DNA of 34,176 nucleotides from Endozoicomonas arenosclerae (lineage in GTDB: Bacteria; Pseudomonadota; Gammaproteobacteria; Pseudomonadales; Endozoicomonadaceae). The DNA lies in the NCBI RefSeq assembly GCF_001562015.1, contig NZ_LASA01000014.1, positions 1-34,176 on the forward strand. Reading direction: 5' to 3'. Position numbers and translations under genes: made by a program. Positions 6,049 to 31,460 of this stretch are shown piece after piece; positions within the stretch are counted from its first letter, which is position 1; every line of letters starts with the position of its first letter. The notes under the pieces were generated by a model. The model was not told the origin of the DNA and searched no databases. It was given only the letters and a program-made list of their open reading frames with translations.

Positions 6049-6993
6049 AGTTTCTCTCCTTCCATGGTGGTTTAAGCTTTATTCGTCAGCTGACTTGTTA
6101 TTGATTACAAGTCTTCAGGGCAAAACTTCCCCCTGACAAATTAATGCCATTATTTTCGATACTTAATAGAATCCCGTTGTCGTAAGAAAAGATTTTTCTT
6201 AAACAATGAATAGATTTTTCCGTTAAGCACTCTTAGATACGAAAGAAAAATAAAACAAGTTTCAAATAATTTTTAGATATTAAAATTAACTTAAGAAGGA
6301 TGTTAGCTGTCATCTAGACGACATTAAAAGAGTTTATTCAATGGCAGAATCAGAAAAGTAATATATGCAATTAGCATTAATAATCATGGAGATAGATTCC
6401 AGCAATCAATTTAATTTCTCCATAAAAAGAAAAATTCGATAAAAAACACTTCTGTGCCATAACTCACTATGGCATTAAAAAAAGTTTCAATTATTTACTG
6501 TTAAACATTTCATTACTGCTTTTCTTCTCAACATAATTTTTAACAGTTCCTCTTATTAAGTCTTAAAAACAAAGTAGTTGCAAAGAGATTACTGGCATGT
6601 CGATATTCAATATTCGTCCTTTCATTAGTGCTCTAATGCTTCAATTTCAGCACCTGATTTCTACTACTCTGTACGCCTATTAATACTAATTTTTTATAAA
6701 TCATTGTCGTTTATCGTCCGACAGCCATCTTCAATTTTTCGTGATACAAGTCTCAAAATCGGGATAAAAGCGTGTTTACATATTGTATACAATATAAATT
6801 AGCCAAAAAGAAGATACATAAAGTTCGTGGATTTTTAACAAGGATTGGGCTGTAGAAACGAATTTAAAAAAGGGGCTTATAACTGTTCCAGGTCGGGTGA
6901 CCGATGTGCTTCATAAAAAGCAGTGGAGATGACAGCAGTTTGTCAGCCAGGGGAATCAATAAAAACAATAACGTCTGAAAGGATTGAATCATA
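6049..6993. other. 945-bp AT-rich intergenic region holding one GntR-type operator
   Basis: This region separates the leftward cupin-like gene from the rightward metalloprotease gene. It is markedly AT-rich and has no supportable gene; a 65-codon leftward frame at 6864-7061 overlaps the protease start and is rejected. The only clear element is the perfect palindrome at 6780-6795, about 200 bp before the protease start, which implies a long 5' leader. The protease Shine-Dalgarno is AAAGGA, about 10 nt before its ATG. I could not fix a promoter with confidence. Confidence 0.6.
6780..6795. promoter_or_regulatory. Perfect 16-bp palindrome, putative GntR (FadR-type) operator upstream of the M43 protease
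   Basis: ATATTGTATACAATAT is a perfect dyad containing TTGTATACAA, which fits the FadR/GntR consensus T-N-G-T-x-A-C-N-A. The same core occurs at 20608-20623 beside the gntR gene and twice at 31417-31460. Assignment to the GntR encoded at 20846 is inference from sequence identity and position. Confidence 0.7.
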
Positions 6994-9900
6994 ATGCTCA
7001 AACAATTCCGGACAGGTGCAGCCATCACTGCCCTATCCCTGGTGACGGCTTTATCAGCCAATGCCGGGGAAAAGCCTCCGAGCAGTTCGACACTACAATC
7101 ATTTTCAACAGCCAGTGCCTCTACCTTATTAAAACAACTGACTGTTTCAGATCACCTGAAAACCGGAGGCCATGTTTGTGGCACCGATGAGAATGGTCAG
7201 CAATGGCAACCCAGCCCGAATGAAAAACAATTCTTTGAAGGCAGCAAGATCAGTCAGCAGTTCGGCAAGCTGAACATGGCTGTTTCGCCTACAGCCATTG
7301 GTAATGCAGATGAAGGTGAATACATTATTCCTGTCGTCTTCCATATTTATGGCTCTGAGCATAACTGCGATACCGGTGGTATCTGTGCCCCTGATTCCGT
7401 GATCAAGGATGCACTGCGCAAATCCAATGAAGACTTCCAGGGCCTGAATACCCAGGATGGTCCCATCGCAGCACAGTTTCAGGCCATTCGTGAGAATATG
7501 AACGTTGAGTTCGTACTGGCTCAGATTGACCCCAATGGAAACCCAACCACTGGTATTGTTCGTCATGGTGCTGCCTCTGGCTACGGTAACTATGATGCAC
7601 CCAATGATGCTGCCCGTGCCGCAAAAAATGCTGAGATCGCAGCTGATGCCTGGGACAACTATCGTTACATGAACATCTATATCATGAACGATCTCAGTGG
7701 CGATGGTCAGACCAATAACTCGGGGGTTGCCTGGTATCCTTCCACCAGCATGTCAGACGACGGACTGGCCCGTGTCGTATACAACGGTGCTTTTCTTGGC
7801 ACCAATACCAGCGAGAACTTCCGCTCGGTATTAACCCATGAATTCGGCCACTGGTTAAACCTGCCACACACTTTCGATGGCAACACCTGCAGCTCTGAGA
7901 ACCAGATCTTCTGTGCCCACAGCGGTGACCGTGTCTGTGATACTCCCCAGATGAGCAACAGTTCCATGGCCAACAACCAGGAAAACTGTCTGGGTGAGCC
8001 TACGAATACTGAAAACTTCATGCACTACACCGACAATTACGCCATGTTCACCCAGCAACAGGCTCAACGTATGTATGCTGCACTTCATCATCCAGCCCGC
8101 TCTTCGCTCTGGACTGATGAGAACCTGGTATCGGTGGGTCTGAGTCAATATGTAGCTGGCAGCCCTCACTCCTGGGATGGTTCAGGAGCTGATGCACCTC
8201 CCGAAGGTGAAATATTAATGGAAATTCCCGGCCTTGCTGCCGAGAAAGGCGACATTGACACTTACACTATTGATCTTGAAGCCGGTACTGAAGTGGTGGC
8301 TTTTTATCTGGACGGTTACGCAGAGGATCCAGACCTTTATGTTAGACATGGTCAGGCACCTTCTTTTGACGGTACTAACTGGACTTACGACTATCAGTCT
8401 TTCCTGGCAGCAGGAACACCTGAGTTCGTGGGTATTGTCAGCCCTAAAACGACAGGTACTTACTATGTTACCGTGCATGCATTTTCTGCATACTCCAATG
8501 CACGCCTGATGGCTGTAAAGATGGATGATCCTACTCTATGTGAAGGCTGTGAGCGGGTTGTACTCCATGAAGAAGAGAACATGTCAGCCAAGAAAGGCGA
8601 CACGCCCAAAAAGTATGCTTTCACAGTACCTGCGGATGCCACTCGTGTCATGGTTGAAATTCCAGGCGGTTACGGCAGCACTCTGGAAGGCGGTCCTGAT
8701 CCGGATCTTTATATCAGCCACAATTCAGTCCCCACTACCGACGAGTCTGACTGTGCTCCATTCAAGGCTCCAGGTTTGCGAGAAGTGTGTGAGTTTACCG
8801 GCAGCGACCTGGGCGGTACTTACAATGTCATGATCGTACCTTTCCTTGATTACAGTGATGTATCACTGCGTGTTGTATACGATCGACCTATTCCCACAGG
8901 TGGCGAAAACGTTGCCCCAACCGCTAATGCCAATGGCCCCTACTCTGCTGAGCTGGGAAGTTCCATTCTGTTCAGCAGTGCCGGATCTTCTGACTCCGAC
9001 GGTACCATCACCCGTTACAGCTGGAACTTTGGCGACGGTAACTCCAGTACTACAGCCAGTCCGAGCCATACCTACGCCAGTGCGGGTACTTACACGGTAT
9101 CACTGACTGTCACTGACGACGGTGGCAAAACAGCTACAGCCACGACCACCGCAGAAATTACTGAGGTTCCCAGCAACCAGCTGGAATCAGGTGTACCGGT
9201 AACGGGTCTTGGAGCTAATGCTGGCGAAGACGTCATCTACTTCATCGATATCCCTGCAAATGCTACCAATGTTGTCTTCAAGATCAGTGGCGGTAGCGGT
9301 GATGCTGACCTCTACACACAGTTTGGCTCTGAGCCCACTGACTCCAGTTATGCGTGCAGACCTTATATTAGTGGCAACGAAGAAACCTGTAGCCAGTCCA
9401 ACCCTTCTGCCGGTCGCTGGTACGTGAGAGTTAAAGGTTATCAGACGTTTGCGGATGTAACATTGACGGTGACTTATGATGTAGCCGGACCTAACTCAGC
9501 ACCTACAGCTAACGCCAATGGTCCATACAGTGGGAATGCCAATGCTGCCATCAGCTTCTCCAGTGCCGGATCCACCGACAGCGATGGCAGTATTGCCAGC
9601 TACGCCTGGAGTTTTGGTGATGGCGCGACCAGCACATCTGCTAACCCATCACACACCTACAGCACTGCAGGTACTTATCAGGCAACCTTGACGGTTACTG
9701 ACGACGACGGCGCTACAGCGTCCTCCACTGCAACCGTGACTGTTGGAGCCGCAGTGCCTGGCGGACTGGTTAATGCCTGCGCTTCGGAACCTGCAACCGA
9801 TTACGTCAATATGGAAAGTGGTAAGCCTTATTGTGTTACCAGCAGTACTGGCAACAAGGTTTACTTCTACTTCTATACCACCAGCGCCACCCGGGCCACA

Positions 9901-10101
9901 CTGAGAACCCAGCATGGCTCCGGAGACGCTACCCTGTACTACAGCAATACCACATGGCCAAGTGAAACCCAGTTCACTGCCCGCTCTAATAACAGCGGTA
10001 ATACAGAAAGCATCACAACCACCGACCTGGGCAATGGCTGGAACCATATCATGATTGAAGGCAGCCACAGTGGCATGACCATTCAACTTGATATTGAGTA
10101 A
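6994..10101 (+). CDS. Secreted M43 (cytophagalysin/pappalysin-type) metalloprotease with PPC and PKD domains, 1035 aa
   Basis: An extracellular zinc endopeptidase. A Sec signal peptide ends at about SANA (residue 24). The zinc site H-E-F-G-H-W-L-N-L-P-H gives His282, Glu283, His286 and His292, with the Met-turn NFMHY at Met343, as in M43 metzincins. After the catalytic domain come two PPC-type beta domains (about 405-510 and 515-625), a PKD domain (638-725), a third PPC domain (727-830), a second PKD (833-920) and a C-terminal PPC-like domain (925-1035). PKD/PPC modules often bind or loosen collagen-like and other insoluble substrates. The palindrome at 6780-6795 suggests co-regulation with the hydroxyproline genes, so hydroxyproline-rich protein is the inferred substrate. 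A bidirectional terminator follows. M43 family membership is firm; collagen as substrate is not shown. Confidence 0.88.
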   Translation: MLKQFRTGAAITALSLVTALSANAGEKPPSSSTLQSFSTASASTLLKQLTVSDHLKTGGHVCGTDENGQQWQPSPNEKQFFEGSKISQQFGKLNMAVSPTAIGNADEGEYIIPVVFHIYGSEHNCDTGGICAPDSVIKDALRKSNEDFQGLNTQDGPIAAQFQAIRENMNVEFVLAQIDPNGNPTTGIVRHGAASGYGNYDAPNDAARAAKNAEIAADAWDNYRYMNIYIMNDLSGDGQTNNSGVAWYPSTSMSDDGLARVVYNGAFLGTNTSENFRSVLTHEFGHWLNLPHTFDGNTCSSENQIFCAHSGDRVCDTPQMSNSSMANNQENCLGEPTNTENFMHYTDNYAMFTQQQAQRMYAALHHPARSSLWTDENLVSVGLSQYVAGSPHSWDGSGADAPPEGEILMEIPGLAAEKGDIDTYTIDLEAGTEVVAFYLDGYAEDPDLYVRHGQAPSFDGTNWTYDYQSFLAAGTPEFVGIVSPKTTGTYYVTVHAFSAYSNARLMAVKMDDPTLCEGCERVVLHEEENMSAKKGDTPKKYAFTVPADATRVMVEIPGGYGSTLEGGPDPDLYISHNSVPTTDESDCAPFKAPGLREVCEFTGSDLGGTYNVMIVPFLDYSDVSLRVVYDRPIPTGGENVAPTANANGPYSAELGSSILFSSAGSSDSDGTITRYSWNFGDGNSSTTASPSHTYASAGTYTVSLTVTDDGGKTATATTTAEITEVPSNQLESGVPVTGLGANAGEDVIYFIDIPANATNVVFKISGGSGDADLYTQFGSEPTDSSYACRPYISGNEETCSQSNPSAGRWYVRVKGYQTFADVTLTVTYDVAGPNSAPTANANGPYSGNANAAISFSSAGSTDSDGSIASYAWSFGDGATSTSANPSHTYSTAGTYQATLTVTDDDGATASSTATVTVGAAVPGGLVNACASEPATDYVNMESGKPYCVTSSTGNKVYFYFYTTSATRATLRTQHGSGDATLYYSNTTWPSETQFTARSNNSGNTESITTTDLGNGWNHIMIEGSHSGMTIQLDIE

Positions 10102-10123
10102 CCGGACTATATCCCTCTAACCC

Positions 10124-13006: not shown

Positions 13007-15178
13007 TCAGTCATCTGTTTCAATGGTCAGTTTCTGTCGACGACGGAAAGCACCCATTACGGGAATCATCAGCCCGATCAGAGCTAATAATGTTCCCGCC
13101 AGAGGCACCAGATTGGGTTGGTTCCAAGCCTGCTGGTACTGTGACCTCATGGCAGGATCAACCCGGACATATTTTAATGTTGAGTAACTGATACCATGTC
13201 GCTTGGTATTCGACAACCATTGGTTCGCAAGAAAATAGTCTTTTACGTTATAGCCCCAGATCCAGGGCGCATCTTTCTGCACCATCGCCACCATGTCGTG
13301 AATGGCGGCCAGCCGCTCAGGACCATTCGTCAGTGTTTTCACCTTGTCATAAAGAGCGTCGTAATCTGCCCGATCATAATTGATGTAATTGGAGCCATCG
13401 CATTGGCACTTCAGGCTGCCCTGACGACTGTCCAGTAGAAACAGAAAGTTTTCCGGATCCGGATAATCCGCTAACCAGCCCCATTTGAAAATCTGGGTAT
13501 TGCCCTGCCTGATCTTTTCCTTGAATCGGGAAAAATCCGTCACTCGGAACTCCAGCTGAATGCCCAGCTTTTGCAACTGTCTGCGCATCCAGTCGGAGCT
13601 CGGGCTATTATCCCTGCTGGTAGTATCCAGATATAAGATCAGCGGTTCACCCGTCTCTTTATGACGCCCATTGGGATAACCGGCCTCAGACAACAGTCGT
13701 CTGGCATAGTCCAGTGATTTACGTTCGGCCCTGCCGGTTGTTTCGTTCCAGTCATAGACATAGGGATTCATCCCTGCCTGACCTTCCCGGTATCCATACA
13801 AACCAGGAGGTACTGGACCATGGGCGGCTTTACCCAGGCCATTTTCAAAGATATCGACGTACTCCTGATCGTCCCAGGCAATACTGATGGCCTGTCTCAA
13901 CTTCTGCCTGTCTTCTGTGTACCCACCCACCACAGGGTCTCTCATATTGAAAGCGGTGTAGTTAATGGAAGGTCGGATCTCTTCATCCACCTGGATATTG
14001 TTAGCGATCAGTTCCGGAGTCAGATCCAAGCCATCCGGGCCTACGGTAAATGCCTGATCAAAAGTGGCTGAGTTCACGTTGGAAGAGTCTTCACCCGAGC
14101 GGTCATAGTAACCCTGCATAAACTTGGCCCACTGGGGAGTGGCACTGTCCATACGATAGACAGCCCGATCAATAAAGGGCATCCGCTTGCCCGCATCTTT
14201 CAGGAACCCTCGAGCTCTGTCGTCTTCAGAACCCTCTGATGGGTAATAGTCTTCACGGTAATTAGGGTTCCGCTCCAGAATAATTTCCCGTTTCGGTTGA
14301 TTACTGACCATCATAAAAGGTCCGGTTCCCACCGGGTTCCAGTCCAGCACCAGATTCTTATCAATAAACCCGGGATTATGATAAAAACGGTCAGCCTCCC
14401 AGGGAATAGGAGCAAAAAAGCGCATAGCCAGCCAATAAACAAACTGCGGATAGATACCTTTAATACGAATGGTATAAGTTAACTCATCGATCCGCTCAAC
14501 GCCCTCCAGATTAAACTGCCGTAAATCCAACCACTCACCTTTCACTTTTGCCGCTTTGATCTCATCAGACAGCTCAGACATTCCGACGATGTAGTCGGAC
14601 ATCAAACCAAACAACGGAAACTTATTGGCAGAATCTGCCATGCGTTTCATCTGGTAGATATAATCATCGGATACCAGTTGGCGAGCATCTGTTTCAGGGA
14701 AATCCGACAGTAATAAATAATCTTTGCTCTGCTCAGCGGTATCAAACAGATATAAAGACTTTCCCTGGTCATTTCGGGCAAAGGCCGGATGAGGCTGAAA
14801 GAGAATATCCCGCTTCAATTTTATTGTGATCAGACTGAAGGCTGGATCTTTCGCATCTTCTTCCAGTGGCTGCAACTGTTCATCAAGATAGGTCACCGAA
14901 GGCATGGCTGAAGCCGTCATGGGCTCCAGCTCATAAGGGCGTTTCAGATAATGGTATTGAAGTGGCGGCTCATAGATTTGATCGGTAAACATGCCTTCAT
15001 CAGAACTGTAAGCCCGAACCGGATCCAGATGCTTGGGTTGGCTGACATAACTGGCGTTGTATGTAATCTTGTCTTGCTGCTCGGGTCCATTGGGATTATT
15101 CCAGGGTCCCGAACAGGCCGTAAGAAAGATCAGGGAAAAGCCCAACAGCCCTTTCCTGAAAGGATATGAAACGTTCAT
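13007..15178 (-). CDS. Peptide ABC transporter substrate-binding lipoprotein (family 5) with a C-terminal membrane segment, about 723 aa
   Basis: A family 5 (OppA/DppA-type) extracellular solute-binding protein, expected to capture peptides in the periplasm. The N-terminus ends in the lipobox L-T-A-C. The body has the family pattern YNASYVSQPKHLDPVRAYSSDEG, LKRDILFQPHPAF, WNPVGTGPFMM and the late GWLADYPDPENFLFLL segment. Residues near the C-terminus (LVPLAGTLLALIGLMIPVMGAFRRR) form a membrane helix with a basic end, so it may be anchored at both ends; some gamma-proteobacterial homologues share this. It is the sixth gene of the hydroxyproline operon, 45 nt after the reductase gene. No permease or ATPase genes follow; the next gene is cut by an IS. 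I prefer the ATG at 15178 to an in-frame TTG at 15193; neither has a strong ribosome site. Confidence 0.82.
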   Translation of the reverse strand: MNVSYPFRKGLLGFSLIFLTACSGPWNNPNGPEQQDKITYNASYVSQPKHLDPVRAYSSDEGMFTDQIYEPPLQYHYLKRPYELEPMTASAMPSVTYLDEQLQPLEEDAKDPAFSLITIKLKRDILFQPHPAFARNDQGKSLYLFDTAEQSKDYLLLSDFPETDARQLVSDDYIYQMKRMADSANKFPLFGLMSDYIVGMSELSDEIKAAKVKGEWLDLRQFNLEGVERIDELTYTIRIKGIYPQFVYWLAMRFFAPIPWEADRFYHNPGFIDKNLVLDWNPVGTGPFMMVSNQPKREIILERNPNYREDYYPSEGSEDDRARGFLKDAGKRMPFIDRAVYRMDSATPQWAKFMQGYYDRSGEDSSNVNSATFDQAFTVGPDGLDLTPELIANNIQVDEEIRPSINYTAFNMRDPVVGGYTEDRQKLRQAISIAWDDQEYVDIFENGLGKAAHGPVPPGLYGYREGQAGMNPYVYDWNETTGRAERKSLDYARRLLSEAGYPNGRHKETGEPLILYLDTTSRDNSPSSDWMRRQLQKLGIQLEFRVTDFSRFKEKIRQGNTQIFKWGWLADYPDPENFLFLLDSRQGSLKCQCDGSNYINYDRADYDALYDKVKTLTNGPERLAAIHDMVAMVQKDAPWIWGYNVKDYFLANQWLSNTKRHGISYSTLKYVRVDPAMRSQYQQAWNQPNLVPLAGTLLALIGLMIPVMGAFRRRQKLTIETDD

Positions 15179-15223
15179 CGAAGCAATGCCCAAGAAATAT
15201 TATTGTTATTTTTTTGACCGGAT

Positions 15224-18223: not shown

Positions 18224-18231
18224 AGTTATTA

Positions 18232-19506: not shown

Positions 19507-19528
19507 GGTATCCCTCCCACCTTCTAAT

Positions 19529-19559
19529 ACTCTGGTCTGAGCAATTTTCAGACCAGAGT
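19529..19559 (-). promoter_or_regulatory. Intercistronic stem-loop between deaminase and oxidase genes
   Basis: ACTCTGGTCTGA (19529-19540) and its exact complement (19548-19559) form a 12-bp stem with a 7-nt loop in the roughly 100-nt gap after the deaminase gene. No T run follows on the minus strand, so it looks more like an mRNA processing or stability element than a full terminator. It could make the first gene more abundant than the rest. Confidence 0.5.
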
Positions 19560-19605
19560 CACGCAAACCCTTACAACCCTGTACTTCTTGCGTGCTTAAA
19601 CTTTT

Positions 19606-20502: not shown

Positions 20503-20600
20503 TTTTCTTATTTCCTTATTGGTATCTATGAGCTTTCCATCAGAAAGAGGGAAAAGGATTTCGTTTTATTTTTATTGTTTTTAAATAATGTACTCATACG

Positions 20601-20630
20601 GTATTGCATATTGTATCCAATATGCAATAC
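20601..20630. promoter_or_regulatory. Long palindrome, putative GntR operator controlling the catabolic operon and gntR
   Basis: Two perfect 13-bp arms (GTATTGCATATTG at 20601-20613 and its complement at 20618-20630) flank TATC. The centre (20608-20623) differs by one base from the 16-bp palindrome before the M43 protease. A related half-site, GGATACAATG, lies at 20651-20660, where TACAAT could also be part of the gntR -10. It is placed between the divergent deaminase and gntR genes. Leftward, TTGGAT and TATGAG spaced 16 nt overlap the palindrome and could be the operon promoter, which would fit repression. Regulator identity is inferred. Confidence 0.75.
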
Positions 20631-21532: not shown

Positions 21533-21727
21533 TTAAATCTGGAAAGTCTGTCATACAGTCGCCTGTGACCATAGACAAACAGAATCCGCTACACGACTGA
21601 AACTACCCATTCAGTCAGTAGCCGCTTCATTGCCATGGATCGTTCAGCTAACGGCCGTGGGAGAGGAAACCATTCTCGATGCCTTTGGGCAAAAAGAATG
21701 AACACAATAAAAAGAACGAGGAACCTC

Positions 21728-23308
21728 ATGTCAATCGCAGGAAAACTGTTACTGGGCCAGGATCAGGTCCAGGGACAAGGCAGCTCTTTTCAAGCCATCA
21801 ATCCGGCCACCCATACTGAAACAGGCCCGGTTTATGGCAGTGCCACCCAGGCTGATGTAAACAAAGCCTGCACGCTGGCATCCGAAGCTTTTGGAAGTTA
21901 CCGACGCACTTCACCGGAGCAACGCGCCCACTTTCTGGATCGTCTGGCTGACCGTATTGAGCAACTGGATGAGGAGCTCGTTACTGTCGCCTGTTCTGAA
22001 ACTGGACTGCCCGCTGCACGAATTCAAGGTGAAAAAGGCCGAACCATTGGCCAGATCCGGATGTTCGCTGAAGTGGTCAGAACCGGACTCTGGCAGTCTC
22101 CAACCCTTGATTCAGCTTTACCTGATCGTCAGCCTTTGCCCAGGCCGGATTTACGTCGCAGTTATGTCCCTCTTGGCCCTGTTGCTGTTTTTGGTGCCAG
22201 TAATTTCCCCCTAGCTTTTTCTGTAGCCGGTGGTGATACAGTTTCAGCCCTGGCAGCTGGAGCCCCTGTTGTAGTTAAAGCACACAGTGCACACCCTGGT
22301 ACGTCAGAGATCATGGGGCGCGCTCTTCAACAAGCCATTAAAGACTGCAATTTGCACCCAGGCACATTTTCACTTCTATTCGATAAAGGTTTGGAAGTGG
22401 CAGAACAACTGGTGACGAACCCTGCGATAAAGGCTGTTGGGTTCACCGGTTCGCAGGCCGGTGGTGAAGCCCTGATGAGACTCGCTGCAGCCAGACCGGA
22501 ACCCATCCCGGTGTTCGCAGAAATGGGCAGCACCAACCCGGTCTATCTTCTACCTGATGCACTGAACACCCGGGCTTCTGAATTTGCTGAAGGCTATAGT
22601 GCTTCTTTAACTATGGGCGCAGGCCAATTCTGTACCAACCCGGGATTACTGATTGCCATTGACAGTCCACAACTGAACTCTCTCATTGATGAAATAAGCC
22701 AGAAGCTTGATGTCACTGAGTCTCAAACCATGCTCACCCCTGGCATCTACAGAAATTATGTTCAGAAGGTCGATAAGCTGCTCAGTAAAAAAGACATAAC
22801 GGTTCATACCTCTTGCAAATCTGCCATAGCGGCAAACCAATGCCACCCCATGTTATTCAGCGTAACGTCTGAACTTTTTTTAAACGACAACAGCCTGGGT
22901 GAAGAAGTGTTTGGCCCTTCCGCCATGGTCGTGCGTTGCAAAAACCTGGATGAGATGCTGAATCTCACCCGAAACCTTGAAGGCCAGCTCACAGCCACCA
23001 TTCACTGCCAGCCAAAAGACCATGACAGCGCAGAAGCTTTACTCCATGAGTTGGAGCTGAAAGCTGGACGCATTCTGTTTAATGGTTTCCCAACCGGTGT
23101 TGAAGTGAGCCATGCCATGGTTCACGGCGGTCCTTATCCGGCAGCATCAGACAGTCGTGGCACATCAGTTGGTTCCTCTGCCATTCAGAGATTCCTCCGA
23201 CCGGTTTGTTACCAGAATACACCTGAAACATTATTACCCCAGACCATCGACAGTAAGAATTCCCTGAATCTCAGAAGACTGCAAGATGGCCGTTACAACG
23301 ACCAGTAA
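21728..23308 (+). CDS. 2-oxoglutarate semialdehyde (2,5-dioxovalerate) dehydrogenase, 526 aa
   Basis: An NAD(P)-dependent aldehyde dehydrogenase making 2-oxoglutarate from its semialdehyde, the last step of 4-hydroxyproline breakdown. Active-site residues are Cys302 in G-A-G-Q-F-C-T-N-P-G, Glu265 in F-A-E-M-G-S-T-N-P and Asn159 in G-A-S-N-F-P-L-A-F; Lys184 in VVVKAHSAHPGTS binds the cofactor. The roughly 525-residue length and the FCTNPGL motif match the ketoglutarate-semialdehyde group found in hydroxyproline clusters rather than general aldehyde dehydrogenases. The ATG at 21728 has GAGGA 6 nt upstream; the frame is open from 21635. It is downstream of gntR across about 195 nt, and a start for the aminopeptidase lies within its last codons, so the two are likely cotranscribed. 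Confidence 0.88.
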   Translation: MSIAGKLLLGQDQVQGQGSSFQAINPATHTETGPVYGSATQADVNKACTLASEAFGSYRRTSPEQRAHFLDRLADRIEQLDEELVTVACSETGLPAARIQGEKGRTIGQIRMFAEVVRTGLWQSPTLDSALPDRQPLPRPDLRRSYVPLGPVAVFGASNFPLAFSVAGGDTVSALAAGAPVVVKAHSAHPGTSEIMGRALQQAIKDCNLHPGTFSLLFDKGLEVAEQLVTNPAIKAVGFTGSQAGGEALMRLAAARPEPIPVFAEMGSTNPVYLLPDALNTRASEFAEGYSASLTMGAGQFCTNPGLLIAIDSPQLNSLIDEISQKLDVTESQTMLTPGIYRNYVQKVDKLLSKKDITVHTSCKSAIAANQCHPMLFSVTSELFLNDNSLGEEVFGPSAMVVRCKNLDEMLNLTRNLEGQLTATIHCQPKDHDSAEALLHELELKAGRILFNGFPTGVEVSHAMVHGGPYPAASDSRGTSVGSSAIQRFLRPVCYQNTPETLLPQTIDSKNSLNLRRLQDGRYNDQ

Positions 23309-23333
23309 GAGCACCTGTGGAACAAAAATAATT

Positions 23334-25115
23334 ATGGAAACCATCAAAGATCGTGTCAGTCAGTTCCAGGAACTGATGAGCAAGAAAAATATCGATGCCT
23401 GGATTCTTCCGAGCAGTGACGCACACAATAGCGAATACGTTGCTGATTACTGGAAAGGACGAGCCTGGCTGTCCGGATTTACCGGTTCTGCCGGTACTCT
23501 GGTTGTTACTCAGAAAGAAGCCGGTTTATGGACCGATGGGCGTTACTTTATCCAGGCCGAAAAAGAGCTGGAAGGCTCGGGCATCACACTGTTCAGAATG
23601 TTTAACCCAGGGGTTCCAAATCTGAATGAATGGCTGGCGGATACGCTGGCAGACAGTGCCGTCATTGGCTTCGACGGCACTGTCATCAGTCAGAATCAGG
23701 CCAAAGGCGTTTTAAAGGCTTTTTCGGATAAACCCGTTACCCTGAGTTCCGATGATGATCTGTTGTCTGCTATCTGGGAAGACCGCCCCGCCCTGCCTGT
23801 TGAATCCGTCTTTCGTCATGAAGACCGCTATGCAGGAAAAACTACGCAGGAAAAGTTGGCTGAAATCCGTACCAGCATGGCTGAAAGCAATGCCGATTAT
23901 CACTTGCTGACAACACTGGATGACATTGCCTGGACATTGAATCTGCGTGGCAGTGATGTGCCCATGAACCCTGTGTTTATCAGCTATCTAATGATCGGCC
24001 CCGAAAAAGCTACCGTCTTTGTTGATCCTGCCAAACTGGATGAAACTATCATTCAGTATCTGTCAGCATCCGGCGTTGAAGCCCAACTCTATTCTTGCGT
24101 CTGGGATCGTTTATCCACCCTGCCAGAAAACAGCTCTGTATTACTCGACCCAGCCAAAGCCAGCCGAGCCATCTTTGATGCATTACCTGAAAGTGTTTCG
24201 GCGGTTGAAGGTAAAAATCCCAGCACATTGATGAAAGCCATCAAAAACAGCACCGAAACAGAACATTTCAGACAGGCCCTGCGCAAAGACGGTGTTGCTA
24301 TGGTGCGTTTTATGAAGTGGCTGGAAGAGGAAGTGCCTTCGGGAACAGTAACTGAGCTGTCTGCCGAAACAAAACTCACTCAACTTCGTGCTGAAATGGA
24401 CGGCTATAAAGAAGACAGTTTCCGCACTATTGCTGGCTATCGGGAACACGGCGCCATGATGCACTATGCGGCATCTGAAGAGTCCGATGTAACCGTTCAG
24501 CCCGGAAGCTTTTTCCTTGTGGATTCCGGTGGTCAGTACCCGGACGGCACGACGGACATCACCCGAACCTTCTCTTATGGCGAGCTGACTGAACAGGAAA
24601 AGAAAGATTACACGCTGGTGCTTCAAGGTCATATTGACCTTTCCATGGCCGTTTTCAAGACAGGTTCCTGTGGGTGCAACCTTGATATTCTGGCCAGAGG
24701 ACCGCTTTGGAAAGAGGGTATTGATTACGGTTGTGGCACCGGACACGGAGTTGGCTTCTTCCTGAACGTTCACGAAGGGCCACAAGGATTCAGTCAGAAA
24801 CTGATTGATGAACCCCTGAAGCCCGGCATGGTCATCACCAATGAGCCCGGCATCTACCGTGAAGGCATTCATGGGGTGCGCATAGAAAACATCATGCTGA
24901 TCAAAGAGCATTCAGAAACCGAGTTTGGCTCATTCCTCAGCTTTGAAGCGATTACGCTCGCTCCTATCTGTACAAGAGCCATCAATGTTGAAGAACTAAG
25001 CCATGCTCAACGACAGTGGTTAAATGATTATCATCAGACGGTTTTTGAGGAGCTTGCTCCGATGATGTCGGAAGAAGAGCAGGTGTTTTTGAAACTGAAG
25101 ACTGCTGCGGTTTGA
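23334..25115 (+). CDS. Xaa-Pro aminopeptidase (M24B, aminopeptidase P1 type), about 593 aa
   Basis: A cytoplasmic metallopeptidase that removes the first residue from peptides with proline, or hydroxyproline, in second position. It has the long three-domain form (two creatinase-like N-terminal domains, then the pita-bread domain). Start features are DAWILPSSDAHNSEYVADYWKGRAWLSGFTGSAG. Metal ligands are visible in VDSGGQYPDGTTDITRTF (two Asp), GTGHGVG (His), TNEPGIY (Glu) and GVRIENIML (Glu). I prefer the ATG at 23334; an in-frame ATG at 23286 overlaps the dehydrogenase gene and has no better ribosome site. Position in a hydroxyproline locus fits a role in finishing collagen-type peptides. A bidirectional terminator follows. 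Confidence 0.88.
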   Translation: METIKDRVSQFQELMSKKNIDAWILPSSDAHNSEYVADYWKGRAWLSGFTGSAGTLVVTQKEAGLWTDGRYFIQAEKELEGSGITLFRMFNPGVPNLNEWLADTLADSAVIGFDGTVISQNQAKGVLKAFSDKPVTLSSDDDLLSAIWEDRPALPVESVFRHEDRYAGKTTQEKLAEIRTSMAESNADYHLLTTLDDIAWTLNLRGSDVPMNPVFISYLMIGPEKATVFVDPAKLDETIIQYLSASGVEAQLYSCVWDRLSTLPENSSVLLDPAKASRAIFDALPESVSAVEGKNPSTLMKAIKNSTETEHFRQALRKDGVAMVRFMKWLEEEVPSGTVTELSAETKLTQLRAEMDGYKEDSFRTIAGYREHGAMMHYAASEESDVTVQPGSFFLVDSGGQYPDGTTDITRTFSYGELTEQEKKDYTLVLQGHIDLSMAVFKTGSCGCNLDILARGPLWKEGIDYGCGTGHGVGFFLNVHEGPQGFSQKLIDEPLKPGMVITNEPGIYREGIHGVRIENIMLIKEHSETEFGSFLSFEAITLAPICTRAINVEELSHAQRQWLNDYHQTVFEELAPMMSEEEQVFLKLKTAAV

Positions 25116-25159: not shown

Positions 25160-28063
25160 TTACGTTTTCGGCACCCCTGTCATATCAATACAAGACAGCC
25201 CGATACAGGCAGTACTCTCTTCTGACTCTTCCTTTTTATCCTGATGGCGTGTGCCGTAGCTTTTAATTTCAATGGATAAGGCATCTGTGCTTAATAAAGC
25301 GGTATCATAGGCTCGGATCAATTCTTCTCGGCTGATTTTTCCTATCGCTTCTGCAAACTTGACGGTTTCGTTGAAGTCGATCTCATCACTGCTGATGTAA
25401 CGCCAGAACCGACTGGTTCTTTTGCTCAAGCTCAGATCTTTCTTTAGGAGATCATCCATCAGACCCTGCTTATAAGTCTCGAGCGTTTCTTCCTTGATGG
25501 TTTGAATCTCCTTTTGCTGATCATCAAAGAAGGCCAGCATTCTCCGCTTCAACTCGTCAGGATTCGTGTTTGGAGACTGAATCACAAAAGCCAGACCCGG
25601 ACGATCCTTGATACGATTAGCGCCTCCCCAAACAACATAGCCCAGCTGCTGGTTGGTTCTCAGCTCCCTGAAGAAATCAGAACCCAACATCTCACCCAGC
25701 AAGGCATACATTGCCCGACTCTGTACTGATTCATCCTTTGCCTGATAGTAAAGGACTGAAACAGAATCCGTATGCTCGATATCCAGCTGCAGGTTCAGGG
25801 TATCGACCGCTTTAAGGTCATAGATAGAACTTCGATAAGGCTGTGCAGGTTGCTTTACCAGTGACTTAACTTTCTCCGAGTACTCCAGGGCTTGCTGCTT
25901 TGAAACATTGCCGTGAACCAGTAAATCCAGGTGCGCTTGCTCAAACACCTTGCGGCGATAGGCTTTCAGATCTTCCAGAGTGACAGGCTCCAGATACTGC
26001 AATGACTCTTCAGAGCTGAATCGACCGACATTCACCAGATTCCACATGGCATAATAAGCCTGATCGTCCGGAGTGTTGAGCGACTGATTTTTCAGAATCA
26101 ATCTCAGGGCATCTTTAACGCTTTTAAACGACTTTTCATTAAAATCAACAGACTGAACCGTCTCCAGAGCTGAATATAATAATTCTGGCTGCTTATCGTG
26201 ATAGCCACTGAGGGACAACTCCAACCCCGATGAAGTGGGCTGAATAGAGAAATCCATTCCGGCCTCAGAGGCCTGATAAATCCTCTCATTGAGTGCCTTG
26301 AGATAGAGCCGGTTCAATAACCAGGATTTCACCATATCACTGGCGGTCTGACTTACGACAGTCGTCGAAAGAATCACTTTAAGGTCAGATTTCGGTTGCT
26401 GATAAGTCTGATCCTGCAGATGCCAGAGCCTTAAACCCGGCTGATCAATCACCAATGAAGGGACTTCCTGTTGGGTCTCTGCTGCGGACAGAACCGCAAA
26501 ATCCTCAGGAATATAGGGATTGGCAGTGGGTACCGATAAGCCGCTGATGGTTTCAGGGGATTCAAGACGTTTCAGAAACGCTTCGGAAAGAGGCTTAACG
26601 CCATAGCGGGTCAGGTAGAATGGCTCAACCTGATCCACTTCCACGTCTTTTGCAGACACCACCAGCCTCACACGATCCGCTGTCAATTGATCCAGATAAC
26701 CCTGAATTAACTCAGGTTCATAGGATTCATAACTGTACGGCAGAAACAATACATGACTGGAGGGATAGTTCTGCAACCTCTTAGCAACACTCATGGCATA
26801 GTCCACCGGGCGGGACTGTTCCTTGAATCGAAAATCGATAGACGCCAGGTTCGCCGTCTGTTGATACAACGTCTCTTTCACCCCTTCCTTTTGCAACAGT
26901 TCAAGGTATGAAAAAGTGGCTTCGGTAACCGATTCAAGCTGCTTATAACCCGACTCAGTCAATGACAGCACGACCTCTAACTCACTGAAAGCACCTGCAT
27001 AATCCCAGCTATAAGAGTAAAGGTTCTCAATCAATCCTTTTTCTTTGAGAACACTGTGCAGACTTCCGGGCCCTTCGCCTCCTATTAACTGAGAGATATA
27101 ATCCAGTGGTTTCACTTTATAGTCATCAAGGGTCGAAGGCAGCGAGAAAACCAGTTTCAGCTCATAGGTATCCGCCAGGGTTTCGATATTGATTCTTACT
27201 CCCTGCTGATCCTTCCTGAAAGGCTCTTTATAGGCATTCACTGAACGTTTTCCAGCTGCAATGCTGCTGAGCGAGGCATTGGCCCATGACTGCAGGGTAG
27301 AAAGCGGCTCCTTACCATAAACAACAACCGCCATATTGCTACCCACATAGAACTCTCGGTGCAGTGCTTTTAAGTCGTCCAGTAAAGATTTGCCATCGTC
27401 GTTGTTCAGTGTATCGAGATTCCCGGTACTGAATGCCGCATAAGGATGATCCGATTTACTGATCATCCCTTCCGTGATGTACTTTCGCCAACCGTCGTTT
27501 TTAAAGTTCAACCTGAATTCGGAATCTACGGCATTCCGCTCTCGATCCACATACTGTTTATCGAGAATGGGTTGAGACACTGAATAAGCCAGACGATCCA
27601 GAGCCGGTTGAAGATCATCGGCATTAATTTCAAAGTAATAGTTAGTGCTTTGAGCGTATGTGGTGGCATTGTTCGTCCCTCCACGGCTGCGAATGAACTC
27701 CCTGTAGCCGTCCAGTTCCGGATATTTTTCACTTTTCAGAAACAGCATGTGCTCAAGAAAATGCACCAACCCTTCACGCCCCTCGGGGTCAGACCAACTG
27801 CCTACATTTACATCTATAGACACCGCCGCTTTATCAGTATCCGGATCTGAAATCAAAAGAGTCCTGACACCATTTTCCAGTGTCAGATACTGATACTCTC
27901 TCTGATCGTTAACACTTTTTATAATGGTTTCTGCAGTAACTGCGGCACTGCGAGTTTCAGTATTATCGGTGAGCGGAGCACACCCCGTTGATAGCAGAAT
28001 GGGAATTGCGAAAAACGATGTTTTCAGCAGAGTAGACCAATCCCCTTTTCTTATTCTTCTCAT
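25160..28063 (-). CDS. M16 (insulinase/pitrilysin-type) zinc peptidase lipoprotein, about 967 aa
   Basis: A large M16 peptidase, a family that degrades peptides rather than folded proteins inside a clamshell. The inverted zinc motif H-F-L-E-H lies at residues 101-105, followed by the usual downstream acidic residue in NAVDSEFRLN. The length and the C-terminal catalytically inactive half (LLGEMLGSDFFRELRTNQQLGYVVWGG) match pitrilysin/insulysin. The N-terminus ends in the lipobox L-S-T-G-C, so it is probably a periplasm- or outer-membrane-attached lipoprotein. I use the ATG at 28063 (GGAAG 5 nt upstream); an in-frame ATG at 28075 is possible. It starts 15 nt after the beta-galactosidase stop, so the two form an operon probably under the operators at 31417-31460. 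It could trim protease-released peptides. Confidence 0.88.
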   Translation of the reverse strand: MRRIRKGDWSTLLKTSFFAIPILLSTGCAPLTDNTETRSAAVTAETIIKSVNDQREYQYLTLENGVRTLLISDPDTDKAAVSIDVNVGSWSDPEGREGLVHFLEHMLFLKSEKYPELDGYREFIRSRGGTNNATTYAQSTNYYFEINADDLQPALDRLAYSVSQPILDKQYVDRERNAVDSEFRLNFKNDGWRKYITEGMISKSDHPYAAFSTGNLDTLNNDDGKSLLDDLKALHREFYVGSNMAVVVYGKEPLSTLQSWANASLSSIAAGKRSVNAYKEPFRKDQQGVRINIETLADTYELKLVFSLPSTLDDYKVKPLDYISQLIGGEGPGSLHSVLKEKGLIENLYSYSWDYAGAFSELEVVLSLTESGYKQLESVTEATFSYLELLQKEGVKETLYQQTANLASIDFRFKEQSRPVDYAMSVAKRLQNYPSSHVLFLPYSYESYEPELIQGYLDQLTADRVRLVVSAKDVEVDQVEPFYLTRYGVKPLSEAFLKRLESPETISGLSVPTANPYIPEDFAVLSAAETQQEVPSLVIDQPGLRLWHLQDQTYQQPKSDLKVILSTTVVSQTASDMVKSWLLNRLYLKALNERIYQASEAGMDFSIQPTSSGLELSLSGYHDKQPELLYSALETVQSVDFNEKSFKSVKDALRLILKNQSLNTPDDQAYYAMWNLVNVGRFSSEESLQYLEPVTLEDLKAYRRKVFEQAHLDLLVHGNVSKQQALEYSEKVKSLVKQPAQPYRSSIYDLKAVDTLNLQLDIEHTDSVSVLYYQAKDESVQSRAMYALLGEMLGSDFFRELRTNQQLGYVVWGGANRIKDRPGLAFVIQSPNTNPDELKRRMLAFFDDQQKEIQTIKEETLETYKQGLMDDLLKKDLSLSKRTSRFWRYISSDEIDFNETVKFAEAIGKISREELIRAYDTALLSTDALSIEIKSYGTRHQDKKEESEESTACIGLSCIDMTGVPKT

Positions 28064-28078
28064 TTTCACTTCCATTGT

Positions 28079-31000
28079 TTACAGATTTCTTGTTGTTATC
28101 TCTTTTGTTCCGGACACTACAGCTTCCATCACAAACGAAAATTCATAGTCCCCTGCGGGCAGTCGGTAGTCAGAAAGTAAATCTGCCCCCCAAGAGTTCT
28201 GCCCACCCACTCCAGCCTGAGCCAGATCGATATTGACGGTCATGATGTCGGACACTTCAATATCCGAACCATGGCGACAGGTTAAGGGGGTTAAACCCGA
28301 AGCCCCCCATTCACCGGATGGATCAGGCGTAAAATCCAGCTCTGAACTTTCAAAAGGCCAGGCAGACACATTCAGTAGATCAGACTGCATCTTGAATCGA
28401 ATGCCGATTCCCATTTTGTTCAGCCATTGAGCCCAGCGGACATCCGTTTTATTCCCGGTTTCCTGGGGTCGTGGGTATCGATGAAATTGATCCCGGACTA
28501 ATCCGTCGTAAATGCCAACAGGCAAACCCTTGCGGTCAGAGTAACTCTCCCCTGGCCCTCTGCCATACCAGCTCATGTGTTCAAAAGCCTGATCCATTTG
28601 AAACTGCACACCCAATCTCAGCAGATCAGGTAAACCTTCCGGATCATCCAGTTTTAAACGAGCCGTCACTTCAATCTGACACCGGTCGTTTATTGAATAG
28701 TCCATTGTCAGTTGGCCCTTAACATCAGGCAGGAAGAAATGACTGCTTACCTGGACTTGTCCAGATTCCTTTCGTAGCAGTTCACAAGATTTCAGGCATT
28801 GATGATTTGAAGCCTGTTGCCAGATCCTGGCTTTTTCCTGGATGTTACAACCCAGATCATTGTCAGTCAGACCTCTGAAGAAATTCATGAACGGTCCGCT
28901 TTTCAGTAGGGACTCACCACTGACTTGATAACGTTTTATTGCTCCAGACTGGCGACAGAATTCAACCTCAACCTCTTTGCTGCTGATCCAGATGGATTTT
29001 GAAGTTTGAAAGCATTCAGGACTGCGATCATGTGAAAACACTTCTTCACTCACAGGAGACTGCAAAATAACCTGACCCCAGGCCACAGCATGGCCAGATT
29101 CAAGTAATGCAGAACTCATTGAATCAGGATGAGGGTCTCTGAGGAGAACGTTCAGTGTGAGAATCAGTTCATCATTGGCCGAGAGTTCACTACCATCCAG
29201 CAGCAATGACAATCTGGAAGACTCTTTTGCTGGTGTTGGTGGCAGATTACATTGATCCGATTGAACGGGATGACCGTTTCTCATTAACTCCCAATGCAGT
29301 TCCAGATGCTCCAGACTGATAAAATCATAGTGATTCTCAATGCTCAGTAATACAGTCAGATCATCTCTTAACTGGCATTCTTTCAGCTGGACTCTGACAG
29401 GTTGATAAACAAACCTTACCTCTTCTAAATGAGGGTGAGGTGTTCTGTCTGCGGCGAGCAACCCATCATTCAGAAAGTTGCCATCGGTTGGCAGATTGGG
29501 GTGATAGTCTTTGCCGTACCCCCAAAAGTGCTTTCCAGATTCATCCTTCAATTCAAGAGCATGATCACACCACTCCCAGATAAAGCCCCCTTGCAAGCCT
29601 GGATATTGATCCATCAAACGCCAGTAATCAGCAAGAATACCCACTGAATTACCCATAGCATGACTGTACTCAATCATGATCACCGCTCTTTCCTGCTGGG
29701 ACTCTGCCAGCAGCTTCAATTTATCCAGCGAGGGGTACATAGGGCAGATGATGTCGGTATAGTCATCCTGGCCTGCTGGCTCATACTGAACAACACGACT
29801 CGAATCAAATGACTTCAACCAGTAATAAAGACTTCTGAATACACTCCCGTGTCCTGCCTCATTGCCCAGTGACCAGATAATCACCGATGGATGATTTCGA
29901 TGTTCTATGACCATGGACTGCAAACGGTCATGATGAGCAGGCAACCAGGAAGGATCATTGCCAATCTGGGTTTCATCGGACAGAGCCAGGGGATGGGACT
30001 CTATATTCGCTTCACTGACCACATAAAGACCGTAGCGATCACACAGTTCATACCAATAAGGGTGGTTGGGGTAATGACTGGTACGGACAGCATTAATATT
30101 ATTGACCTTCATCAACCGGATATCGTGTTCCATAACTTCTCTGGGAACATAATGTCCATAGCGATGATCAGTTTCATGCCGGTTTACCCCTTTAATCGTT
30201 ACGGGTATGCCATTTACTTGAAGAAGACCATTAACAACTTCGACTCTCCTGAAGCCAACCGATTGATTTAAAACTTCAAGCTCCCTGCCCTCATGATCCT
30301 CAAGAGTAATCAACACCCTATATAAAGAAGGTGTTTCTGCACTCCATGGGTGCACGGCTTTTAAGCATTGCTCAAATGAGATGCACTGAAAAGCACTCTC
30401 AAGCTCCACTGTTTGCTGCATTGAGAACATCGGGAGATGCACATCCGGTGTATCACCCGGCAAATAACACTCTACTTTTACACGATACTCTGATGGGGCT
30501 TCGGTAAAACTGACAGGCTGTTGCCGGAGTTCGACATCCACCTTCAAATGCCCCTGGACACCGTCTTTATCCAATGATGCCTGACAATGCAGATCAAACA
30601 TTCGCACAGAATGAGTCCGATAGAGATAAACTTCACGCTCCAACCCAGACATGTCCAACATGTCCTGCTTTTCAAGGTAACTGCCGTTACTCCATCGATA
30701 AACTTGAAGGGCAATCAGATTATTGCCTTCTATAAGGAAAGGAGTTATTCGAAACTCAGCGGGACTTTTAGCATTCTGCGAATACCCAACGGGCAACCCA
30801 TTCACCCAGACAATTAAGGCTGAACGAGCTGCACCAATATGGAGATAGACTTCATCATCTGCCCACTCCAGGGGCAGCTCAAACTGTTTTCTGAAACTGC
30901 CTACCGGATTGTAATCCCTTGGAACCTTGGGCCAGCATGATTCAAAGGGATAACGCTCATCCAGATAAATAGCATGATCAAAGCCCTGCGTCTCCCAGTT

Positions 31001-31348
31001 ACCCGGCACCTTTATAGATGACCATTGACTGTCATCGAAGGAGTTTTCATAAAAACCATCAGGCTTTTCTCGTGGGCTAGTGACTAAATCAAACTTCCAG
31101 TGACCATTAAGATCAAAGTAGCGGTCTGACTGAGTTAGCTCATTGTTCAGAGCTTCTGTACGGGTTGGGAATGGAAATACAGAGGCTCTTGAGCTTTCTT
31201 TACCTAGACCGTTAATGGTGTGGTCTTCAAGGATTTCTGGAATGCCATCCTTATCAGACAACCTCTCCTTCAAGTGCAGTGACAAGTGTCTCTGCTGATC
31301 ATATACCGCTGCCATCCAGCTACTGTCGTTTTTATTTTTCTTATTCAT
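28079..31348 (-). CDS. lacZ: Glycoside hydrolase family 2 beta-galactosidase, about 1089 aa
   Basis: A five-domain GH2 beta-galactosidase. Sugar-binding and jelly-roll domains come first (FDLNGHWKFDL, VPGNWETQGFDHAIYLDERYPF), then the TIM barrel with acid/base Glu497 in W-S-L-G-N-E-A-G-H-G and nucleophile Glu560 in M-I-E-Y-S-H-A-M-G-N-S, then the C-terminal small-chain domain (WYGRGPGESYSDRK, PQETGNKTDVRW). No signal peptide is present, so it acts in the cytoplasm on imported galactosides. The start is uncertain: I use the ATG at 31348; in-frame ATGs at 31387 and 31408 lack ribosome sites. It leads an operon with the M16 peptidase gene and is divergent from the TonB receptor. Two GntR-type palindromes lie upstream, which ties it to hydroxyproline use; no lac repressor or lactose permease is seen here. 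Confidence 0.9.
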   Translation of the reverse strand: MNKKNKNDSSWMAAVYDQQRHLSLHLKERLSDKDGIPEILEDHTINGLGKESSRASVFPFPTRTEALNNELTQSDRYFDLNGHWKFDLVTSPREKPDGFYENSFDDSQWSSIKVPGNWETQGFDHAIYLDERYPFESCWPKVPRDYNPVGSFRKQFELPLEWADDEVYLHIGAARSALIVWVNGLPVGYSQNAKSPAEFRITPFLIEGNNLIALQVYRWSNGSYLEKQDMLDMSGLEREVYLYRTHSVRMFDLHCQASLDKDGVQGHLKVDVELRQQPVSFTEAPSEYRVKVECYLPGDTPDVHLPMFSMQQTVELESAFQCISFEQCLKAVHPWSAETPSLYRVLITLEDHEGRELEVLNQSVGFRRVEVVNGLLQVNGIPVTIKGVNRHETDHRYGHYVPREVMEHDIRLMKVNNINAVRTSHYPNHPYWYELCDRYGLYVVSEANIESHPLALSDETQIGNDPSWLPAHHDRLQSMVIEHRNHPSVIIWSLGNEAGHGSVFRSLYYWLKSFDSSRVVQYEPAGQDDYTDIICPMYPSLDKLKLLAESQQERAVIMIEYSHAMGNSVGILADYWRLMDQYPGLQGGFIWEWCDHALELKDESGKHFWGYGKDYHPNLPTDGNFLNDGLLAADRTPHPHLEEVRFVYQPVRVQLKECQLRDDLTVLLSIENHYDFISLEHLELHWELMRNGHPVQSDQCNLPPTPAKESSRLSLLLDGSELSANDELILTLNVLLRDPHPDSMSSALLESGHAVAWGQVILQSPVSEEVFSHDRSPECFQTSKSIWISSKEVEVEFCRQSGAIKRYQVSGESLLKSGPFMNFFRGLTDNDLGCNIQEKARIWQQASNHQCLKSCELLRKESGQVQVSSHFFLPDVKGQLTMDYSINDRCQIEVTARLKLDDPEGLPDLLRLGVQFQMDQAFEHMSWYGRGPGESYSDRKGLPVGIYDGLVRDQFHRYPRPQETGNKTDVRWAQWLNKMGIGIRFKMQSDLLNVSAWPFESSELDFTPDPSGEWGASGLTPLTCRHGSDIEVSDIMTVNIDLAQAGVGGQNSWGADLLSDYRLPAGDYEFSFVMEAVVSGTKEITTRNL

Positions 31349-31416
31349 TTTGACATTCACTTTACATAAATGTGACGCAGTTCCCATTTTATGGAATGTG
31401 AATTGCATTCAATAAT

Positions 31417-31430
31417 TATTGTATACAATA
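31417..31430. promoter_or_regulatory. Perfect 14-bp palindrome, putative GntR operator (beta-galactosidase side)
   Basis: TATTGTATACAATA has the same core as the palindromes near the protease and gntR. It lies about 70 bp upstream of the beta-galactosidase start chosen here. Its centre is 29 bp from that of the second copy at 31445-31460. Confidence 0.72.
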
Positions 31431-31444
31431 TTCTTTATACATGG

Positions 31445-31460
31445 ATATTGTATACAGTAT
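31445..31460. promoter_or_regulatory. Near-perfect palindrome, putative GntR operator overlapping the TonB receptor promoter
   Basis: ATATTGTATACAGTAT keeps the core with one mismatched pair. TTGTAT inside it, 18 nt before TTTAAT, would make a -35/-10 pair for the rightward TonB receptor gene. Binding here would therefore block that promoter (inference). Confidence 0.68.

What the first reader, a model, noticed from the sequence alone, without database searches (positions are those of the whole stretch)
6780..31460. One GntR-type palindrome repeated at four places links protease, hydroxyproline catabolism, beta-galactosidase and TonB receptor
The core ATTGTATACAAT (one base changed at 20608-20623) appears as perfect or near-perfect dyads at 6780-6795, 20601-20630, 31417-31430 and 31445-31460. 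All four lie upstream of a gene or a divergent pair. One is beside a FadR-type gntR gene, and the core fits the known FadR/GntR consensus T-N-G-T-x-A-C-N-A. The inference is a single local regulon that senses a hydroxyproline-pathway metabolite and also controls an extracellular protease, an M16 peptidase, a GH2 galactosidase and an outer-membrane receptor.
Basis: partly seen in the sequence, partly recalled or inferred. Interest (0 to 1): 0.8.

Follow-up and report, generated by a model that had tools for sequence, protein, structure and literature searches.

The report
HypR-type collagen-use regulon with galactosidase
Four copies of one DNA switch appear to tie a regulator of hydroxyproline use to genes that would cut, import and digest collagen in a marine bacterium, and also, unusually, to a galactosidase that may strip sugar from collagen.

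Summary
A matrix built from promoters of the GntR's relatives in other bacteria, window and sister genus left out, ranks exactly these four first in the window. An operator model run over the 6.45 Mb genome lists four places at E<=10: three in this window, one on contig C78 before a secreted PKD-domain protein (150 of 2118 candidates scored). Parendozoicomonas haliclonae, another genus, keeps the palindrome at the gntR divergon, M16/TonB receptor and Xaa-Pro peptidase; its galactosidase has moved but follows the receptor.

The regulator is HypR-like. Published HypR regulons already include collagenases, proline peptidases and TonB receptors (PMC5343134), so the kind is known. Added here: a GH2 beta-galactosidase, an M16 peptidase and an M43 protease with collagenase-like PKD domains. 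My bold guess is that GH2, with GH63 in P. haliclonae, removes the collagen sugar Glc-alpha1,2-Gal-beta-hydroxylysine. Binding, repression, effector and enzyme activities are untested.

The parts
6780..6795 (.). Operator 1, perfect 16-bp palindrome upstream of the M43 protease gene
   Evidence: matrix score 24.7
6994..10101 (+). Secreted M43 metalloprotease with PKD and PPC domains (1035 aa)
   Evidence: Pfam; catalytic part nearest ulilysin and mirolysin, PKD stretches nearest ColH and other collagenases; signal peptide judged by eye
13007..15193 (-). Family 5 peptide-type substrate-binding protein, probable lipoprotein; last gene of the leftward string
   Evidence: Pfam; lipobox judged by eye
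15224..16174 (-). Ornithine cyclodeaminase/mu-crystallin family, probable Delta1-pyrroline-2-carboxylate reductase
   Evidence: Pfam; best NCBIfam model 265.8 bits, below its cut-off of 322
16174..17217 (-). trans-3-hydroxy-L-proline dehydratase
   Evidence: NCBIfam NF047722 638.9 bits, cut-off 550
17222..18241 (-). 4-hydroxyproline epimerase
   Evidence: NCBIfam NF010578 593.5 bits, cut-off 376
18232..19566 (-). FAD-dependent oxidoreductase, probable D-hydroxyproline dehydrogenase (HypO-like)
   Evidence: Pfam DAO; no NCBIfam cut-off passed in the rows shown
19606..20502 (-). [quoted passage not shown]
   Evidence: Pfam; no NCBIfam cut-off passed; role from pathway context
20601..20630 (.). 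Operator 2, 30-bp dyad in the gntR/hypD-like divergent region
   Evidence: 14 of 15 pairs; matrix score 32.2, best in window; conserved in P. haliclonae
20846..21532 (+). HypR-like GntR regulator, FadR subfamily with FCD domain (228 aa; searches used the frame from 20849)
   Evidence: Pfam GntR and FCD above cut-off; start codon; relatives; tree
21635..23308 (+). Aldehyde dehydrogenase, probable alpha-ketoglutaric semialdehyde dehydrogenase (HypH-like)
   Evidence: Pfam; no NCBIfam cut-off passed in the rows shown
23286..25115 (+). M24 Xaa-Pro aminopeptidase-type enzyme
   Evidence: Pfam; P. haliclonae homologue (67%) has its own palindrome upstream
25160..28075 (-). M16 (pitrilysin-like) peptidase, probable lipoprotein; second gene after GH2
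   Evidence: Pfam; NCBIfam pitrilysin 579.2 bits, below cut-off 765; lipobox by eye
28079..31408 (-). GH2 LacZ-type beta-galactosidase, no signal peptide seen
   Evidence: Pfam; NCBIfam LacZ-type 929.2 bits, below cut-off 999; N-terminus read by eye
31416..31431 (.). Operator 3 between GH2 and the TonB receptor (perfect over 31417-31430)
   Evidence: matrix score 19.1
31445..31460 (.). Operator 4, imperfect copy
   Evidence: 7 of 8 pairs; matrix score 16.6, below the lowest training site 18.8
31526..33955 (+). TonB-dependent outer-membrane receptor
   Evidence: Pfam plug and barrel; 67% identical to the P. haliclonae receptor

Best explanation
The palindromes are operators of the neighbouring GntR, a HypR-type regulator. 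By analogy with studied HypR proteins it most likely binds them as a dimer and represses until a hydroxyproline-pathway metabolite releases it. The genes form a collagen-use system: a secreted M43 protease with PKD domains cuts the substrate, a TonB receptor takes up fragments, an M16 lipoprotein and a peptide-binding protein handle them in the periplasm, an Xaa-Pro aminopeptidase frees imino acids, and enzymes for 4-hydroxyproline and 3-hydroxyproline degrade them. A GH2 beta-galactosidase is in the same regulon; the likely reason is removal of galactose from collagen hydroxylysine. Shown by computation: the sites, their tie to this regulator clade, their conservation in a second genus, the enzyme families. 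Inferred: binding, repression, effector, operon membership, collagen as substrate, the GH2 substrate.
For: Palindromes above chance. Core upstream of 56 of 80 relatives unaltered (control 2) and 65 of 80 refined (control 0). Matrix from 51 distinct outside sites ranks the four sites first: 32.2, 24.7, 19.1, 16.6, next 8.0. Genome scan at E<=10 lists only three window places and C78. P. haliclonae (GntR 64%) has exactly three 16-mer places at <=2 mismatches, each in its homologous cluster (its reversed control is 1). Variants of the site stand at hydroxyproline genes beside GntRs of 34-40% identity in G001, G018 and G117. 3-Hyp dehydratase and 4-Hyp epimerase pass NCBIfam cut-offs. PKD domains nearest collagenases. 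Published HypR regulons with collagenases, proline peptidases and TonB transporters (PMC5343134 section 11) and an M9 collagenase with PKD and PPC domains under Streptomyces HypR (PMC6608401 passages).
Against: 15 of 80 relatives show no refined-core site within 300 bp upstream. Ten relatives without a close GntR match hold 21 places at <=2 mismatches to the 16-mer, two at 1 mismatch, and exact 12-mers occur in relatives with no listed GntR match (G017 four, G012 two, G011, G015 and G019 one each). Operators 3 and 4 would be expected 2.2 and 4.3 times per genome by score alone, and operator 4 is below the training range. No sigma-70-type promoter match at 20500-20860 or 31380-31560. No NCBIfam HypR model matched the regulator. 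M43 was not looked for outside this genome beyond the P. haliclonae cluster stretches, where BLAST labelled none. GH2 relatives elsewhere stand beside a LacI-like gene (by eye) and sugar or amino-acid transporters, so an ordinary galactoside role is possible.
Confidence: 0.82

Rival explanations
1. The sites belong to another FadR-type regulator, for example the GntR on contig C79 beside a 2-methylisocitrate lyase-like gene (by eye), whose own site ATTGTAAACAAT is similar.
For: That GntR has such a site immediately upstream; similar sites stand in G007, one beside its GntR; their matrix scores of 10.0, 13.8 and 14.3 come near operator 4. Cross-talk is possible.
Against: The four window sites score higher (16.6-32.2). 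Nine congeners have no exact ATTGTATACAAT although several have GntR paralogues. The refined core tracks the HypR-like clade.
Confidence: 0.05
2. HypR controls the hydroxyproline divergon, but the palindromes at M43 and at GH2/TonB receptor are chance or decayed sites without function, so the linkage is only neighbourhood.
For: Operators 3 and 4 are weaker (19.1, 16.6); exact cores occur by chance in AT-rich relatives.
Against: P. haliclonae keeps a palindrome between M16 and the TonB receptor despite rearrangement; operator 1 scores 24.7 with a background near 0 per genome; 4 of 7 genome places fall in this contig.
Confidence: 0.09
3. The regulon is real but GH2 serves ordinary galactosides or host glycans and not collagen sugars.
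For: LacZ-type family; relatives stand with LacI-like and transporter genes; no signal peptide seen, so glycopeptides would have to enter the cell; no GH63 homologue at E<=1e-30 in this genome.
Against: In both genera it lies beside or behind a hydroxyproline-operator receptor gene; in P. haliclonae a YgjK-like GH63 follows it.
Confidence: 0.5
4. The dyad at 20601-20630 is a transcription terminator.
For: The terminator scan flags 20600-20631 followed by a T run (1 found, shuffles mean 0.1).
Against: The region is divergent and no plus-strand gene ends there among the ORFs listed; only 4 G-C pairs; the core recurs upstream of gntR relatives.
Confidence: 0.02

Closest known systems
HypR regulon of Proteobacteria (PMC5343134, section 11 read in full; S. 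meliloti HypR of White et al. 2012 known only as cited there)
   Same: GntR regulator, autoregulatory site, epimerase, dehydrogenase, deaminase and semialdehyde dehydrogenase as targets; in Alteromonadales also collagenases, proline peptidases and TonB transporters.
   Different: GH2, M16 and M43 PKD/PPC protease are not named there; the Fig. 2 and RegPrecise motifs could not be compared.
HypR of Streptomyces coelicolor (PMC6608401, passages)
   Same: FadR-type with metal-site histidines; represses hydroxyproline genes and an M9 collagenase with PKD and PPC domains.
   Different: Binds TACAATGTCAC-like sites with unclear symmetry, not this palindrome; M9, not M43.
Collagen cluster of marine Colwellia (PMC7883544, passages)
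   Same: Secreted collagenase, TonB receptor, proline peptidases and hydroxyproline enzymes together.
   Different: M9 collagenase and a PutR regulator; the passages name no galactosidase in the cluster.

Membership tests
HypR regulon | Regulator is GntR, FadR subfamily (GntR HTH plus FCD) | tested here: met
   PF00392 and PF07729 above cut-off
HypR regulon | Orthologue of the S. meliloti / RegPrecise HypR group | tested here: inconclusive
   Tree places it in a clade with alphaproteobacterial GntRs, Ensifer and Sinorhizobium among the wider set; S. meliloti HypR itself was not compared and no NCBIfam HypR model exists among the hits
HypR regulon | Autoregulation: operator upstream of hypR | tested here: met
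   Site 20601-20630; 65 of 80 relatives
HypR regulon | Core targets hypE, hypO, hypD, hypH | tested here: met
   Epimerase passes its NCBIfam cut-off; the other three by Pfam family and position only
HypR regulon | Hydroxyproline or a product acts as inducer; protein represses | not testable with these tools
   Needs gel shift and expression tests
Collagenase | Catalytic domain of a known collagenase family (M9) | tested here: not met
   Catalytic domain is M43, no M9 hit; only its PKD domains match collagenases best
Collagenase | Activity on native collagen | not testable with these tools
   Needs the purified protein
Collagen galactosyl-hydroxylysine galactosidase | Beta-galactosidase fold and family | tested here: met
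   GH2/LacZ domains above Pfam cut-offs
Collagen galactosyl-hydroxylysine galactosidase | Activity on Gal-beta-hydroxylysine | not testable with these tools

The most novel reading that the evidence does not exclude
In these Endozoicomonadaceae HypR runs a whole collagen-glycopeptide programme: besides 4-Hyp and 3-Hyp enzymes it switches on a beta-galactosidase for Gal-beta-hydroxylysine, joined in P. haliclonae by a GH63 glucosidase for Glc-alpha1,2-Gal. That would be a bacterial, hydroxyproline-controlled route for stripping the collagen disaccharide.
Probability: 0.33. Interest if true: 0.72.

Novelty: new variant of a known kind. Interest (0 to 1): 0.52.

Why it matters
Collagen is an abundant animal protein and this family of bacteria lives with marine invertebrates (recalled). 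A hydroxyproline switch that also commands glycosidases would give a directly testable bacterial route for removing the hydroxylysine-linked sugars of collagen, with a short gene list. It also shows a regulator and its operator type shared across Alpha- and Gammaproteobacteria.

Tried and rejected
Chance palindromes: rejected. Terminator reading of 20600-20631: rejected. C79 paralogue as main binder: thought unlikely. Hydroxylysine breakdown inside the regulon: the site at C282:79071 between an APH/aminotransferase-III fusion and saccharopine dehydrogenase-type genes looked promising, but it scores 12.7, below all training sites, is not listed in the genome scan, and the fusion is found in 1 of 37 family genomes, the own one, at E<=1e-80, so not in P. 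haliclonae. I leave it out. The nearest solved relative of its aminotransferase half is ethanolamine-phosphate phospho-lyase, so hydroxylysine is only one option. The identical 16-mer at G016:C45:41961 lies before other genes. C235:4044 lies inside a frame and is taken as chance. GH63 in the own genome: 0 matches at E<=1e-30; 6 of 37 family genomes have one.

Literature searches made. The lists for HypR with galactosidase (12 of 126 rows seen) and galactosylhydroxylysine with galactosidase (12 of 621 rows seen) showed, by title and abstract start, nothing that joins the two in a bacterium. RegPrecise was not on hand, so I do not claim that GH2 in a HypR regulon is absent from print.

The core ATTGKATMCAAT was refined after looking at those sites; the unaltered core is counted. 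In the genome scan 150 of 2118 first-look candidates were scored. The matrix was trained on 64 sites, 51 distinct; L115 (P. haliclonae) and the 15 loci without a site were left out of the training. The cluster span used for the P. haliclonae binomial (1.2e-7) was chosen after seeing the sites.
Full report
1. Observation. The four palindromes are present as described: exact cores at 6782 and 31418, cores one base off at 20610 and 31447, all intergenic. In the 6.45 Mb genome the exact core occurs three times, twice in this contig, reversed pattern 0. At <=1 mismatch there are 11 places against 3 reversed. The 16-mer at <=2 mismatches gives 7 places, 4 here, reversed 0.

2. Genes. Leftwards from the 20601 dyad run a DHDPS-family gene, a FAD oxidoreductase, 4-hydroxyproline epimerase, trans-3-hydroxy-L-proline dehydratase, an ornithine-cyclodeaminase-family gene and a peptide-type binding protein; rightwards gntR, an aldehyde dehydrogenase and an M24 Xaa-Pro aminopeptidase-type gene. 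Among the window proteins scanned against NCBIfam only the epimerase and the 3-Hyp dehydratase pass a cut-off in the rows shown. From the 31416/31445 pair GH2 and M16 run left, the TonB receptor right. That each string is one operon is inferred from strand and spacing. The 6780 site precedes the M43 protease, whose PKD stretches match ColH and other collagenases best and whose catalytic part matches ulilysin and mirolysin.

3. Is the palindrome this regulator's operator? Relatives were collected by GntR similarity only (the best 80 of 578). At 0 mismatches it is 4 of 80, none elsewhere. With the core refined to ATTGKATMCAAT after seeing the sites, 65 of 80 have it at <=1 mismatch, 13 hits elsewhere, reversed 0 and 0. 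Of those 13, 8 lie outside the frames I called; two stand by a gene for a protein starting like a DHDPS-family lyase, and the neighbours were otherwise not scanned against families. A sequence-only model from 54 sites (three of them from P. haliclonae, none from the window) lists at E<=10 in the whole genome the places 20605, 6779, 31416 and C78:10066 only. The 31445 site is listed when the window alone is searched (9.7 bits).

4. Conservation. It has exactly three 16-mer places at <=2 mismatches (reversed control 1): before the Xaa-Pro peptidase, between M16 and the TonB receptor, and beside gntR. At the gntR site a 28-base core differs by one base between the two genomes while the flanks differ much more. 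In P. haliclonae GH2 (56% identical) follows the receptor and is followed by a GH63 protein whose nearest solved relative is E. coli YgjK. In the window GH2 is divergent from the receptor. So the order changed while the palindrome stayed at the receptor promoter. At E<=1e-100 the receptor is found in 4 of 390 order genomes; the P. haliclonae copy is 67% identical, the two in other genomes (G002, G381) 37%. That a YgjK mutant makes Glc-alpha1,2-Gal is recalled, not read. In three further genomes (GntR 34-40% identical) variants of the site stand in hydroxyproline clusters: G001 2 of 3 places, G018 2 of 4, G117 3 of 6.

5. Controls against. Ten relatives with no close GntR match hold 21 places at <=2 mismatches (reversed 1 in all), two of them at 1 mismatch, both in G007, one beside a GntR paralogue. 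Exact 12-mers occur in 7 of 27 relatives, the own genome included. Operators 3 and 4 are of modest score.

6. Origin. In a tree of 89 GntR proteins the window and P. haliclonae sequences group with four Kiloniella sequences (99/95) inside a set of ten that otherwise holds Sneathiella and Terasakiella (100/99); the fork joining the window to Kiloniella is weak (98/57) and the window branch is long. The four Kiloniella loci carry exact ATTGTATACAAT upstream of gntR. Horizontal transfer is the simplest reading.

7. Known work. HypR regulons with collagenases, AmpP and other proline peptidases and TonB transporters are described in PMC5343134 (section 11 read; passages). Streptomyces HypR controls an M9 collagenase with PKD and PPC domains (PMC6608401, passages). 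GntR sites of the FadR kind are reviewed in PMC4494728 (passages). Shewanella HypR is listed in PMC3223726 (passages). A Colwellia collagen cluster has much the same set (PMC7883544, passages). PMC8626586 (passages) states that collagen hydroxylysine bears Glc-alpha1,2-Gal and that animals have a glucosidase for it. The regulon is thus a variant of a known kind; GH2, M16, M43 and the C78 protein are the additions.

8. Judgement. The regulon is well supported by computation and untested at the bench. The collagen-sugar role of GH2 is a hypothesis at about one in three.

Noticed in passing
G000:C78:10069-10084 and L088:10107-12113: A further good operator (matrix score 24.4) stands before a secreted 668-aa protein with a PKD domain, a weak PPC match and a CxxCH haem-type motif (by eye); its N-terminal two thirds matched no Pfam or NCBIfam family.
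   Followed up: partly
G000:C282:76717-79086 (L229:4715-7087): An APH/aminotransferase-III fusion gene stands divergent from two saccharopine dehydrogenase-type genes with a weak palindrome between; it may break down hydroxylysine. Found in 1 of 37 family genomes at E<=1e-80.
   Followed up: partly
window 11848-12800: Two short frames with IS1595-type transposase domains, apparently a split element, lie just behind the peptide-binding gene; in P. haliclonae the homologous binding protein is followed by permease-like genes and an ABC ATPase.
   Followed up: no
window 775-2931 and 5041-6048: Predicted proteins of 718 and 335 aa with no Pfam or NCBIfam match.
   Followed up: no
L073:4281-6539: In P. 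haliclonae a YgjK-like GH63 gene follows GH2 behind the TonB receptor; absent from the own genome at E<=1e-30.
   Followed up: partly
L075:10412-12556: A lipoprotein-like prolyl oligopeptidase (S9) gene stands in the P. haliclonae cluster just before the operator of the Xaa-Pro peptidase.
   Followed up: no
window 31402-31413: A third, weak palindrome (score 8.0) 16 bp from operator 3, at the GH2 start.
   Followed up: no
G000:C79:2960-2971 (L006): Another FadR-type GntR beside a 2-methylisocitrate lyase-like gene has the related site ATTGTAAACAAT just upstream.
   Followed up: partly
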